64,000 nt of DNA from Erigeron canadensis. Taxonomy: Eukaryota; Streptophyta; Magnoliopsida; Asterales; Asteraceae. The stretch is from positions 682,001-746,000 of the forward strand of contig NC_057769.1 in NCBI RefSeq assembly GCF_010389155.1, given 5' to 3'. Position numbers and translations under genes: made by a program. This document shows, piece after piece, positions 57,560-64,000 of this stretch. The notes beneath the pieces are model-generated. The model worked only from the letters and a program-made list of their open reading frames with translations. It made no database searches and was not told the origin of the DNA. Each line of letters starts with the position of its first letter. The stretch's first letter is position 1.

Positions 57560-60500
57560 AACAAGATCTTTCAAGTACTTCTCACGCTGATGCTCGCGAT
57601 CATAAGCCTTCTTGCTCTTAGTTCATCAATGTCAATCCTTTCTAGTTCCTCTTGTTTTGAGAGATCTGAGATGCTTTTTCTTCTAGAAATCTTGTAAGTC
57701 TGAACAATTGAGAAGGAATGGCCAGATAATCGATTCATTTGTCCTGAAGCCTCCTTCATTGATTCGGTGTAATGGTGGTGTTTTGAATGCGAGGATGATT
57801 GAGGTGATGAGCGAGTTGGTATAGGTTCAAATGGCTTAAGGAAGGATTTGGTTGAGGGACAGATGGATAGGTATCATAGCTAGGAGGGGGAAGATCATCA
57901 TTATCAGAAGAATCGTCATCATCATTTGGATCAATATCGTTGCCACCAATGTCAAATACATCAAATTCATCATTATCTTTTGCATCTTCAACAATTACCA
58001 ATGAGTCAGATTAAACCCCTGAGATTGAGCATCATCTCTTAAGTCCACATCTTCTACGACTTCGTGTCATTCCTTGCTTGATTCTCAGTGGTTTCTATGT
58101 TCAATTCCTTGTTATCACAACATCATCATTTCCAGCTTCATCGTTGGCCACATTTTCATTGACATCTTGTTGAGCATCATGAGATCTCGTGTCTGTGCTT
58201 CATCTCCAGCATCTACATTGTCGCTAACAACTTCAGTGGTAGCACTTGCTCTGACTTCAGTCGTCTCAGTATCTCTGTTCTCCTCTTGTGTTGATCCTGA
58301 TCATCAGGACCATCACGTTTGCAATGGACGACTGCAGCTGGTTACAAGATTCTTCTAAGTCCGCAATTCTCTTTAAAGCTGCTTCAAATTGTGCATTATG
58401 AAGAAATGTTGCTGTTCGGCTTCTCGTTTTTGAAGTAGTAGCTGATGTTGATGATCAAATCGAGCTGGAGAATTGCAAGAATGGCTTTGTCAAAGGTATC
58501 GGTTGATTGTCTAGAGAGGGAGAGCTGCATATAAGTCACCATATAAGGAATGACTTTGGAGCGAAGTGATGACTCATGATGTGGAGTTGAATGATGAGGG
58601 TATGTTATGATGTGAGGATGAGACGGAAGGTGAAGAGTGTGGTAGTGATGTTGAGGATTTGTTGAGGAAGAAGTCCAGCACCTTCTAGATCCATAAAGGT
58701 TTGTCTTTCTTATGGATTTGCTCTTAGTCTGATGCCTTCAGGATTAGGAGGAGGACTATCACTTGATGATGATGAGGGGGATGTGATGGTGCTTTACCTT
58801 TGTCAACAGGTGGACGGAGCACTGCGGTGGTGGCGGTTGAGTTGAATGGACAGGAACGACCGACATGGATGTCGTTTGCACACATGTAGGCTCCGTTGGG
58901 TTTACAGTGTGGCCTGAATGGTGTTGGCCACCAGGACTTCCAATGATTTATGAAGCAAATGCTCTACATTGGGTTTCAGAAACTTATTGGCTCAACACAA
59001 GTGTCAAGCGCAATGTTCCGGATGGTGGGACTACCGGGTTTTCCAAGATCGCCCGTTATGCTGGGGATTGCATCCTCAGCGCTTGTCATGATAACATAAG
59101 TAGGACTTCAGACACTCCTTGAGAAGGTGGAATCACGACTCTCGGTCTGTTGATGCAAATCAAAGGATGTGTGTGTGCTCAGACAATGTGACCTGGAGAT
59201 CTAGACTCAATTGTGTGAGGAATGAAAGTGGGAGAGAGGCAAGAGTCTCCGCTGCTTCAATATCGACATCCTCCGAGCGAGGAATTGATAGTGGACGTGG
59301 TTGGTGCCTGTGCAGAAATGAAACTGGATCCCGTAAAGAGAATCCAGAGTGGCGAGAAGGTGAATCATGCGAGGGTGGGGAGTCCTCGGTTCTATCCTAG
59401 TGGTGGCATCACGACTAGTTGTTTCAACTATCAGAGGGCCATCGTTTTCTTTTTGCCCTATACTTAGCCCAGACCTCACATCTTCTCCATTTTGTTTTCA
59501 ACCCCTCCCTCAGGACCACCTTGTCTCTCCGGAATATCAAACACAACGTCATCAAAGGATTATAATCTTGAGTATCATCATGACATGTGGAAGGAACAAT
59601 TTCGGGAACATCCTCAGAATTGGATTAAGAGGAGTTTTGACCCTTAAGTGATTTTAGGAATGGAGGGCGAGCAACAGATGATTATGAGGATGAAGAAGAT
59701 GGAGTTAGAGGAGAAGGAGAGCAGTGAAGGAAGCAGAACGAGATCTTGATTTTGATTTTGTTTAGATTTTGATCGGTGGTGAGTTTATGCTTCTTTGTTG
59801 AGGCTCAGTTGATTCTGGAATGTCGGTGGAAGAGATGGAGCGGAAGTGCCAGGTGCCGAAACATCAACAAACCCCTCTTTTCTTTTTCTTGACATACGAC
59901 CCTCACGAGGCGACCTATGGGGGCTTGGGGAAGGCACAACTCGGTGTTGAGCGGCCATAAGCCCTTCTAAATACACTCTATAGATCCTAAGGTCAGGATC
60001 ATCTAGGGGCACCCGGCTAAGAAGAGATTCAGGAATTTGCATGAAAGGAAGATGAGAAAGGCGATCGTTTGCATAAACAGATCGGAAGCTTGATATTACA
60101 ATGCGTGGAGAAGCGGGGAATCTTTGAATGTTGTGATTGTGGTGATGAAATGCTGCAAGATAACAGTTAAGAAACGAAAAGCTATATACTTTTTGATAGC
60201 AGTAAACTTCCCATTTACTTGAAGACGGAGATGATCAAAGGCCGGCAACAAAATCAATGTGGAGATCATATGCAATGCCAAAAATATGTAATGGTGGCTT
60301 TTGTGAAGTCGTCTTGCCCTTTCTTGAAGGAGAGAAGCATTGTTGATGATGTGAACATAAAGTGTGCCACAGGGGATGAAAATTCTTCTTCTTTACGTCT
60401 TTAAGAGCTTTGATGTTGCCATCATATCCCAAGTCCTGGACTCGATGCAGGATTTCAATCAAAGGGGGAAGTTCGATGAAGTCATTGAAGCCTTCCCTTG

Positions 60501-60848
60501 AGTCAGCAGTAGGGAACTGAAGAATTTGTCTGAACTCTTCAAGGTTGAAGGTGAACTCTTGTCGGCCACCATTAGTTGTGAGCAGTGAGAATTTAAAGAA
60601 TGGTACAGCTCTGCCTCGTCTAGGAACAAATTGAATCGTGGCCATAATTCAAATAGTAGTTGTTCTTCGATTCCAGAAGCAGTGATGGTGAAGACACGAT
60701 GTAATGGATGATGTGTGATCATTACTGGGATGATACCATGTTGACAGGAGAATGGTATCATCAGCTGTAGATTGTTCGGCATATGTACGGTGGCACCATC
60801 AACGAGGAAATCCATTATGCGATTAACAAGTATGCGAAAAGGAAACAT
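57560..60848 (-). pseudogene. decayed extra ORF downstream of Copia pol
   Basis: The minus-strand ATG at 60848 opens MFPFRILVNRIMDFLVDGA. After a frameshift near 60645 the reading continues RRGRAVPFFKF, FNLEEFRQILQFP, PLWHTLCSHHQQCFS and KPPLHIFGIAYDLHIDF. It shifts again near 60235 to LQVNGKFTAIKKYIAF and RFLTVILQHF, and later reads MQIPESLLSRVPLDDPDLRI and a basic RMSRKRKEG tail at 60042-59785. Acidic and Pro-rich segments (DPNDDDDSSDNDDLPPPS) near 57960-57860 and a charged helix-like part at 57759-57571 complete the pattern. I recognise this as resembling a protein of unknown function annotated beside Copia pol in Asteraceae genomes. It is not gag, as no zinc knuckle is seen. Several shifts and stops make it non-functional. 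Identification is from memory of the family pattern, not from a search. Confidence 0.6.
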
Positions 60849-60879
60849 TGTTTCCAGGTTAATTTATTTCAAAAAGTTT

Positions 60880-62330: not shown

Positions 62331-62337
62331 AAGAACG

Positions 62338-62425
62338 CAAACTCCCCTAGACAGAAGCATGCAGTCAAGAAAGAAAATAGTTAACTCCCCTAAATTCATG
62401 CATTCTACCCTTTTTCTCCCCCTCA
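62338..62425 (-). other. multiple polypurine tracts after pol
   Basis: The minus strand reads TTTGAGGGGGAGAAAAAGGG, then TTTAGGGGAGTTAAC, then CTAGGGGAGTTTGCG within 90 bp. Such tracts prime plus-strand DNA synthesis in LTR elements, and repeated tracts are described for Sireviruses. Confidence 0.65.
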
Positions 62426-64000
62426 AACATTGCACGTAAGATCACAGAAGCATACATCAAATGTTTGACAAGCAAAATAAACATAGAATGTATGGTGCAG
62501 AAGCAGTAAGTTTCTAAGTTCAATACCCAGCTTGGTTTTCAACATATTGAACCTTTGTTCGTCCAAAGGTTTAGTGAAAAGGTCAGCAAGCTGGTAGTCA
62601 GTCGGGACAAAGTATAATTCGATGTTACATTTCTCAACATGATCTTTGATAAAATGGTACCTCACATCGATATGCTTCGTCGGCTATGTTGAACTGGATT
62701 GCAGGAAATAGCAATAGCACTTTTGAATCACAGTATATGGGAATACGATCATAGTTGAAGCCGAAGTCAGATAGTTGTGTTTTCATCCACAGAACTTGAG
62801 AGCAACAACTGGCAGTTGCGACATACTCAACTCTGCGGTTGAAGTGGAAACACAATTTTGTTTCTTGGAAGACCATCCGACAAGCTTATCTCCCAAGACT
62901 GTACACTACCAGAAGTGCTTTTCCTATCAAGTTTGCATCCTGCATGATCTGCATCTGAGTAAGCTGTTAGTTCAAATCCAGTATTTTGGATACCATAAAC
63001 CAAGATTCATGGTGCCCTTAAGATACCAAAAGATGCGCTTGACAGCCTGGGCATGACTATCCTTAGGGTCTGCTTGGAATCTTGCACACATGCAAGTGGA
63101 GAACATAATATCGGGACGGCTGGAAGTTAGGTACATTAATGAGCCATCATGCTCCGATAAAGTTTTGGTCAAAGATACCATTGAGGTCGGCATGTATTTT
63201 AGTTCTGGCTTCCATTGGTGTACCAATTGGTTGACAATTAAGCATATCAAACTTTTTCAACATATTGTATGTATTTGTTTTGACAAATAAAAACCATTTG
63301 AAAGTTGTTTTACTTGTAAACCCAAGAAAAAGTTTAATTCCCCCATCATGCTTATTTCAAATTTGTCAACCATAAGGGTAGAAAGTTTTTGCAATATTTG
63401 GGGTTGGTAGACCCGAAGATGATGTCATCAACATAAATTGAATGAGAATGATGTCACTTCCTTGTCGTTTGATAAACAAGGTCGTGTCGATTGTACCTTT
63501 TGTGAAGCCATACCGCAGAAGGTAAGTAGATAGAGCATCATACCAGGCACGTGGGGCTTGTTTGAGACCAATAATGCTTTATCCAATCGGTAGACATGAT
63601 TCGGACGTTTGGGATCCACGAAACCTTCTGGTTGACCGACAAACACCTCTTCTTTTAGAACTCCATTAAGGAAAGCAGACTTGACATCCATTTGGTAAAC
63701 TGTGAAGTTCTTTAATGCCGCGTAAGCAAGAAAGATGCGAATGGCTTCTATACGAGCAACTGGAGCAAAGGTTTCATCATAGTCAATGCCGTCTTGTTGA
63801 GAATAACCTTTAGCTACCAATCTAGCCTTATTCCGGACAACAATTCTGTTTTCATCCTTTTTATTCTTGAATATCCATTTTGTTGGAATTGGAGCTTTGT
63901 TGACATTTGGATTGGGAACCAGTTTCCACACCTCCAGTCGATTGAATTGAGTTAATTCCTCTTGCATTGCACGAACCCAGTCAGGGTCTTTCAGAGCATC
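62426..64000 (-). pseudogene. Copia pol: reverse transcriptase and RNase H (broken, partial)
   Basis: The minus strand from the window edge reads LTQFNRLEVWKLVPNP, TKWIFKNKKDEN, RNKARLVAKGYSQQDGIDYD, ETFAPVARIEAIR and MDVKSAFLNGVLKEEVFVGQ, the Copia RT fingers and palm. A frameshift follows near 63570, after YRLDKAL. The catalytic YVDDIIFG is still readable at about 63436-63413 in another frame. SSRPDIMFSTCMCARFQ and RIFWYLKGT follow (63190-63010), then RNase H with EYVATASCCSQVLWMKTQL and YCDSK. After a further shift it reads RYHFIKDHVEKCNIEL and ADLFTKPLDEQRFN. At least three frameshifts are needed to read through. Gag, protease and integrase would lie beyond the right edge. Confidence 0.9.

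What the first reader, a model, noticed from the sequence alone, without database searches (positions are those of the whole stretch)
57560..62430. Extra, non-gag ORF on the far side of Copia pol
A protein-like reading of more than 300 residues (FNLEEFRQILQFP, PLWHTLCSHHQQCF, KPPLHIFGIAYDLHIDF, RKRKEG, acidic Pro-rich tail) follows RT/RNase H on the same strand, separated by purine tracts and an LTR-like segment. I recall similar proteins beside Copia pol in Asteraceae, with no known function. The position relative to the purine tracts is odd: an env-like ORF should precede them. It may be a captured gene, or the 5' ORF of a second element sharing the LTR.
Basis: partly seen in the sequence, partly recalled or inferred. 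Interest (0 to 1): 0.75.

Follow-up and report, generated by a model that had tools for sequence, protein, structure and literature searches.

The report
Conserved third gene of plant retrotransposon
The stretch is a worn-out copy of a large third gene that a family of plant jumping genes carries between its enzymes and its end repeat; comparison of copies across the genome shows the gene has been kept by selection, although what its protein does is still unknown.

Summary
The window copy is broken and cut by an assembly gap (57335-57434); 20 other copies in the same genome settle the anatomy. In 20 of 20 the ORF region is followed by all or part of a 285-bp LTR; 15 of 20 have pol just upstream. 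The ORF has about 1,440 codons and ends at the terminal AGGGGGAG-AT/TG junction. One copy followed to its 5' LTR has PBS, gag, then pol. The purine tracts before the ORF are the multiple PPTs of Sireviruses (SIRE lineage); the 'LTR-like' spacer is a linker with CCGG palindromes and three covarying hairpins. So this is a SIRE 3' extra ('env-like') ORF, inside the LTRs, not gag and not a second element. It is under strong purifying selection (median dN/dS 0.23; C-domain 0.07, pol 0.06; shifted frames 1.1-1.4), and related ORFs (26-43% identity by part) occur in a second family. No sign of an envelope: no convincing membrane segment, no Pfam or PDB match. I favour an intracellular, nucleic-acid-associated accessory protein. 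SIRE membership rests on non-coding marks; no RT tree was possible. Known kind, useful for an open question.

The parts
63428..63967 (-). pol, reverse transcriptase part (frame broken further down; YVDD box near 63424-63435)
   Evidence: Pfam RVT_2 2.5e-41; YVDD; best matches Tanacetum/Arctium Copia pol
62426..62680 (-). pol, end of RNase H and stop
   Evidence: open frame TKHIDVRYHF...; same motif in copies at the same place
62416..62423 (-). exact Sirevirus PPT octamer AGGGGGAG at the end of pol, an internal copy (not followed by TG)
   Evidence: 1-3 octamers in this region in 15 of 15 copies with pol
62342..62391 (-). two shorter purine tracts (62385-62391, 62342-62348), about where many copies carry further octamers
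61823..62074 (.). cluster of 8 CCGG-centred sites (AACCGGTATT-like palindromes) in the pol-ORF linker
   Evidence: 8 in 250 bp; next best 3 elsewhere in the window; CpG o/e 1.18 for 61800-62100
60874..61222 (-). three hairpin units (61124-61222, 61003-61098, 60874-60972) just upstream of the ORF
   Evidence: fold z -3.05, -1.94, -2.65; found in 16 of 20 copies, three units in 15 and two in one; covariation
57441..60848 (-). extra ORF (broken copy of a ~1,440-codon gene); start codon at 60846-60848
   Evidence: same ATG in near-identical context found in 13 of 20 copies
59859..60848 (-).
   Evidence: alignments A2/A3; dN/dS 0.152
59872..59889 (-). RKRKEG basic motif (nuclear-localisation-like by eye)
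   Evidence: sequence; kept, with single changes in some copies
58314..58397 (-). predicted coiled coil, 8 of 8 a/d positions hydrophobic (Ala and Cys counted)
   Evidence: 0 of 2000 shuffles reach it; coiled coil/acidic part dN/dS 0.245
57759..58010 (-). acidic, Pro-containing tract
   Evidence: 21% D+E, 12% P; period-3 signal 6.3-7.8 in windows that cover it
57441..57622 (-). beginning of the C-terminal domain, cut by the assembly gap
   Evidence: frames; domain seen whole in copies, dN/dS 0.073
57335..57434 (.). 100-N assembly gap; the ORF's end, terminal PPT and 3' LTR of this copy are not in the window
   Evidence: no LTR match in window

Best explanation
A decayed copy of the third gene (extra 3' ORF, forward; 'env-like' in older usage) of a Sirevirus/SIRE-lineage Copia retrotransposon. 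SHOWN by comparison: element order 5' LTR (~285 bp) - PBS - CCGG boxes - gag with zinc knuckle (these four seen in one copy with pol) - pol - up to three PPT octamers - CCGG boxes - three hairpins - ORF of ~1,440 codons - terminal PPT/att site - 3' LTR; and purifying selection on the ORF. INFERRED: the ORF has its own start, so it needs its own mRNA or internal initiation; the CCGG boxes, TATA-like sites and hairpins ahead of it are the likely control region. The product (N-domain, basic motif, Ser-rich and acidic linkers, coiled coil, strongly conserved C-domain with Lys/Arg-rich end) most likely works inside the cell, as an oligomeric nucleic-acid-associated accessory factor (particle/RNP or cDNA handling, nuclear access, or silencing evasion), not as an envelope. 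Confidence: identity and placement 0.9; internal initiation or own mRNA 0.55; intracellular accessory role 0.45; any one of the listed roles below 0.2.
For: LTR after the ORF region in 20 of 20 copies (17 whole, one of them, L010, ~640 bp further on; 1 nearly whole but displaced, L019; 2 partial, L022 and L025); exact AGGGGGAG..TG in 13 of 20. Pol upstream in 15 of 20. One copy with pol followed to its 5' LTR: LTR, PBS GGTATCAGAGC, CCHC, YVDD, RNase H, three octamers; TSD GAATC. Inverted repeat around the terminal PPT (by eye). dN/dS median 0.233 over 190 pairs, none >=1; shifted frames 1.13 and 1.40; C-domain 0.073, pol control 0.058. Hairpins covary: 97.8% of cells paired, 53 two-sided changes vs 17.6 in shuffles, slid controls 32-56% paired. 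Second family: C-domain at 37-42% in 38 further places; of four fetched, four carry the middle and C-domain, three the N-domain, three the coil region. Literature: 74% of SIRE elements have such an ORF (PMC6317226, passages).
Against: No RT tree against named SIRE references was possible. The LTRs (285 bp) are shorter than the 0.54-1.68 kb of 21 reference Sireviruses, and the palindromes sit in the 5' leader and linker, not in the LTRs. In the window copy itself the 3' LTR is not seen because of the gap, so its placement is by analogy. 5 of 20 copies lack pol in the 2.7 kb upstream. The 20 copies were chosen by likeness to one part of the ORF. The role of the product rests on composition only; structure models were unusable (mean pLDDT 37 and 39) and no domain was found.
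Confidence: 0.9

Rival explanations
1. The ORF is a true envelope or cell-to-cell movement protein: made from a late mRNA, inserted in membranes, and used to move particles between cells.
For: [quoted passage not shown]).
Against: In the open stretches tested from 7 copies the highest 19-residue hydropathy is 1.68 (borderline), inside a conserved domain and with a charged residue; no N-terminal signal-like stretch by eye. Basic and acidic tracts look more nuclear or RNA-associated.
Confidence: 0.1
2. 5' ORF (for example gag) of a second element that shares the LTR with the Copia element.
For: A purine tract, TATA-like sites and CCGG boxes lie between pol and ORF, as in Sirevirus LTRs.
Against: No TG after the tract, PBS-like matches at chance level, no CCHC in the ORF region; the family's LTR lies after the ORF and not between pol and ORF in the 15 copies with pol; gag is a separate gene near the 5' LTR.
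Confidence: 0.02
3. A host gene captured by the element.
For: No counterpart in the domain libraries searched; large multi-domain reading.
Against: Related architecture in two diverged families; the C-domain's 109 matches fall in two identity groups (57-100% and 37-42%). Only 108 of 700 candidates were scored and the places were not examined one by one for a host gene.
Confidence: 0.1
4. Non-functional open frame kept by chance or by composition.
For: In the window alone the longest run is not unusual; window copy has 4 in-frame stops in 1,080 codons plus frame changes.
Against: dN/dS 0.07-0.49 by part with shifted-frame controls 0.96-1.85.
Confidence: 0.01

Closest known systems
SIRE-lineage extra 3' ORF, forward (eORF-3'F / env-like; Neumann et al. 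2019, PMC6317226)
   Same: Position after pol, same sense, Copia element with SIRE-type non-coding marks, no recognised domain
   Different: About 1,440 codons here; shown here to be under purifying selection, with a C-domain nearly as constrained as pol. Whether it falls in one of the 19 published sequence groups was not tested.
Sirevirus env-containing elements (Bousios et al. 2010, PMC2829016)
   Same: AGGGGGAG PPT copies, AT/TG att site, inverted repeat at the PPT, TATCAGAGC PBS, palindromes upstream of the third gene, gag with CCHC and (weakly) coiled coil
   Different: 285-bp LTRs; palindromes in the 5' leader instead of the LTR; three ~95-nt hairpins; third gene longer than the 1.8 kb average quoted
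Extra ORFs of Athila/Tekay in sunflower (PMC11728184, passages)
   Same: Extra ORF in Asteraceae LTR elements, basic localisation-like motifs, long disordered parts
   Different: Those are Gypsy elements; no sequence relation tested

Membership tests
Sirevirus / SIRE lineage | Terminal PPT AGGGGGAG followed by AT and the LTR's TG | tested here: met
   13 of 20 copies exact; second family AGGGGGAG-AA-TG in 3 of 4
Sirevirus / SIRE lineage | Several PPT copies in the linker | tested here: met
   1-3 exact octamers after pol in 15 of 15 copies with pol; one more inside the ORF in 16 of 20 copies
Sirevirus / SIRE lineage | Inverted repeat bordering the terminal PPT, right arm inside the LTR (on average 28 bp in) | tested here: met
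   CAAAACCGCACTAA / TTAGTGCTAGTTTTG around the junction in L021, right arm about 19 bp inside the LTR; read by eye
Sirevirus / SIRE lineage | PBS TATCAGAGC after CA/NTTGG | tested here: met
   ACA/CTTGGTATCAGAGC in 2 of the 3 copies whose 5' LTR end and following bases were seen (L021, L011); L025 differs by one base; L028 has an LTR joined to the ORF without PBS; published junction is ATTGG or AGTGG
Sirevirus / SIRE lineage | CGG-CCG palindromic repeats in the LTR and ahead of the third gene | tested here: inconclusive
   CCGG clusters ahead of the ORF and in the 5' leader, none clustered in the short LTR; core differs from the published form
Sirevirus / SIRE lineage | LTR length 0.54-1.68 kb in the 21 reference elements | tested here: not met
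   285 bp; descriptive range, not a formal criterion
Sirevirus / SIRE lineage | Large gag with CCHC and downstream coiled coil | tested here: inconclusive
   one copy only: CCHC (Pfam zf-CCHC 0.0046, below its cut-off) and weak coiled-coil-type hits after it, all below cut-off
Sirevirus / SIRE lineage | RT/RH clade membership | not testable with these tools
   no named SIRE reference sequences in reach; nearest proteins carry only generic Copia names
SIRE extra 3' ORF | Sense ORF of at least 250 codons between pol and 3' LTR | tested here: met
Retroviral-type envelope | Signal peptide and transmembrane segment | tested here: not met
   hydropathy only, one borderline stretch; dedicated predictors not available
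gag | CCHC / first gene after the PBS | tested here: not met

The most novel reading that the evidence does not exclude
The third ORF is an old, indispensable part of a SIRE sublineage: one protein architecture kept in at least two families while published SIRE extra ORFs are described as sharing little or no similarity, expressed through a conserved three-hairpin control region, and carrying inside its coding sequence a conserved central polypurine tract (EGE encoded as GAG GGG GAG in both families) that also serves plus-strand DNA synthesis.
Probability: 0.25. Interest if true: 0.65.

Novelty: new member of a known kind. Interest (0 to 1): 0.42.

Why it matters
A systematic survey found extra 3' ORFs in 74% of SIRE elements, sorted them into 19 groups with little or no mutual similarity, and asked whether they have any function (PMC6317226, passages). 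Here one such ORF is shown to be selected, in its C-domain nearly as strongly as pol, to have relatives of the same architecture in a second diverged family, and to sit behind a covarying hairpin array. That makes function directly testable and argues against the 'envelope' label for this group.

Tried and rejected
Protein searches with the broken ORF (912 and 1,223 candidates, none at E<=0.01) found nothing although the same library holds Tanacetum and Arctium Copia proteins; the word filter and broken query may explain this, so absence is not evidence. IMG/VR scans with ORF, RT, RNase H and three alignments and one scan of bacterial/archaeal genomes found nothing. PDB by sequence: nothing credible. 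Two structure models too poor for a fold search, which was not run. LTR reading of the spacer and the second-element reading rejected. A seeming synonymous constraint in the middle of the ORF (median dS 0.24 against 0.7-1.0 in the other parts) was rejected: identity between the two subclades rises to ~0.90 over 1401-2100, which fits a mosaic, and copies were chosen with a query from that very part. Literature searches listed no paper that I could see describing this Asteraceae ORF; only listings and the passages named were seen.

Papers: PMC2829016 parts 1-4 of 7; PMC7264820 part 1 of 3; PMC3599292 part 1 of 2; PMC6317226, PMC3414828, PMC11728184 passages only; others listing only.
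Full report
WHAT THE WINDOW SHOWS. On the - strand RT (63428-63967, RVT_2 2.5e-41) and RNase H (to 62426) are followed by an exact AGGGGGAG at 62416-62423 and two shorter purine tracts, a 1.5-kb AT-rich linker, and a protein-like reading from 60848 to the N gap at 57335-57434. The reading is interrupted by stops and frame changes. In shuffled sequence its longest run is common (32 of 300), but the sum of the six longest runs (0 of 300) and the 286-codon one-stop stretch (1 of 300) are not. The linker has 8 CCGG in 250 bp (next best 3) and three ~95-nt hairpin repeats.

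OTHER COPIES. The own genome (426 Mb, 356 contigs) could be reached intermittently. A 601-bp query from the ORF gave 40 scored matches, the window's own included, from 276 candidates. I fetched stretches for the best 20 of the other 39. They were picked by likeness in the middle of the ORF, so the set is not a random sample of the family. In 20 of 20 the family's LTR lies downstream of the ORF region: 17 whole (L010's ~640 bp further away than usual), 1 nearly whole but displaced by an insertion (L019, whose ORF is also cut), 2 only in part (L022, L025). The junction AGGGGGAG..TG is exact in 13 of 20. Pol is present within 2.7 kb upstream in 15 of 20; of the rest, L018 has the linker only, L019 neither, and L011, L025 and L028 have a 5' LTR ahead of the ORF without gag-pol.

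ONE COPY TO ITS 5' END. In L021 with its upstream stretch L030 the order is LTR (783-1054), PBS GGTATCAGAGC (1058), 14 CCGG (1303-2090), CCHC (3080), YVDD (8342), RNase H (9113), PPT octamers (9373, 9405, 9451), 11 CCGG (9587-9935), ORF, PPT, LTR (285 bp), flanked by the 5-bp repeat GAATC. This copy lacks about 0.9 kb of linker with the hairpins. Of the three copies for which 10 kb upstream was read, a 5' LTR was found in two (L021, L011); none was found for L014.

THE ORF. Open runs of up to 1,125 codons occur in single copies; put side by side the gene runs from a conserved start (same ATG in near-identical context in 13 of 20 copies, upstream in-frame stops 2-56 codons before) to the terminal PPT, about 1,440 codons. 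For dN/dS, 19 of the 20 copies and the window were aligned (L019 dropped). Median over 190 pairs 0.233 (range 0.167-0.610); frames shifted by one or two bases give 1.13 and 1.40 (L028's unrelated first 1.3 kb was not masked there, but was). By part: N-domain 0.152 (171 pairs), middle 0.488 (190), coiled coil and acidic 0.245 (189), C-domain 0.073 (171), shifted-frame controls 0.96-1.85; pol RT-RH control 0.058 (119 pairs of 16 sequences). Pairs are not independent, and decay after insertion pushes values up, so the constraint is if anything underestimated. The middle's value is affected by the mosaic described below.

A SECOND FAMILY. The C-domain finds 109 matches from 108 scored of 700 candidates: 71 at 57-100% identity and 38 at 37-42%. 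Four of the 38 were fetched. By tblastn the middle (34-43%) and C-domain (33-37%) match in 4 of 4, the N-domain (34-38%) in 3 of 4, the coil region (26-28%) in 3 of 4; terminal AGGGGGAG..TG in 3 of 4. These copies are broken too in part (N part and rest in different frames in L049). An AGGGGGAG octamer lies inside the ORF right after the coiled coil in 16 of 20 family-1 copies and 4 of 4 of family 2, in the same codon phase, coding E-G-E. It is not exact in the window copy. Three codons alone are weak evidence of selection on the DNA.

HAIRPINS. Units were found upstream of the ORF in 16 of 20 copies (three in 15, two in one; 47 units) and three in the window. In an alignment of 44 of these 50 (one too short, five others left out by me: L009's three, one each of L011's and L020's), 97.8% of pair cells are standard; 53 cells changed on both sides against 17.6 in shuffles; slid controls 32-56% paired. 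Two of the five measures do not exceed shuffles (pairs with a two-sided change 164/500; further pair types 500/500), and the units are related by descent.

MOSAIC. Two subclades 60-75% alike over most of the N-domain part are about 90% alike over 1401-2100, in part an effect of choosing copies with a query from there.

WHAT IT IS. The non-coding marks match the Sirevirus description (PMC2829016, parts 1-4 read) in PPT sequence and number, att site, inverted repeat, PBS and palindromes ahead of the third gene; gag make-up fits in the one copy seen, with weak hits only. They depart in the 285-bp LTR and in palindromes of the 5' leader rather than the LTR. The extra ORF in this place is the usual SIRE third gene (PMC6317226, passages).

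HOW IT MAY WORK. Shown: position, length, selection. Inferred: separate expression from the linker; an intracellular multi-domain protein with oligomerising coil and basic C-terminal end, acting on the element's nucleic acid or particle or on host silencing. Not supported: an envelope, since no convincing membrane segment was seen. Host by inference: an Asteraceae (RT matches); nine large contigs and 426 Mb fit, from memory, Erigeron canadensis (not tested).

Noticed in passing
window 56074-57230, +: DOG1-domain gene fragment (Pfam DOG1 3.8e-30), by recall a TGA-type bZIP factor; an exon seems to end at 57230, so the retrotransposon may sit in its last intron, or the scaffold gap at 57335-57434 joins unrelated pieces.
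   Followed up: partly
[quoted passage not shown]
   Followed up: partly
window 30291-31144 and 38872-39728: Inverted pair of ~860 bp, 92.8% identical, on either side of that element.
   Followed up: no
window 52026-52508, 27489-27962, 46873-47228: Segments that match their own reverse complement over 360-500 bp (73-79%): foldback-like elements.
   Followed up: no
L011/L029, L025, L028: Copies with LTRs and the extra ORF but no gag-pol; in L011 the 5' leader is joined to the linker and the copy has a 5-bp repeat ACTTT at its ends. Junctions differ, so separate deletions are likely; copies were chosen by their ORF.
   Followed up: partly
ORF positions 1401-2100 (L023 numbering): Two subclades 60-75% alike over most of the N-domain part are ~90% alike here: a mosaic, probably template switching; choice of copies contributes.
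   Followed up: partly
L009 (G000:C240): Copy 98% identical to the window's over the ORF, on a small contig; allele or recent duplicate not resolved because the window side is a gap.
   Followed up: partly
L023:5266-5273; L049:5471-5478: AGGGGGAG octamer inside the coding sequence, same codons (GAG GGG GAG) in two families: candidate central polypurine tract.
   Followed up: partly
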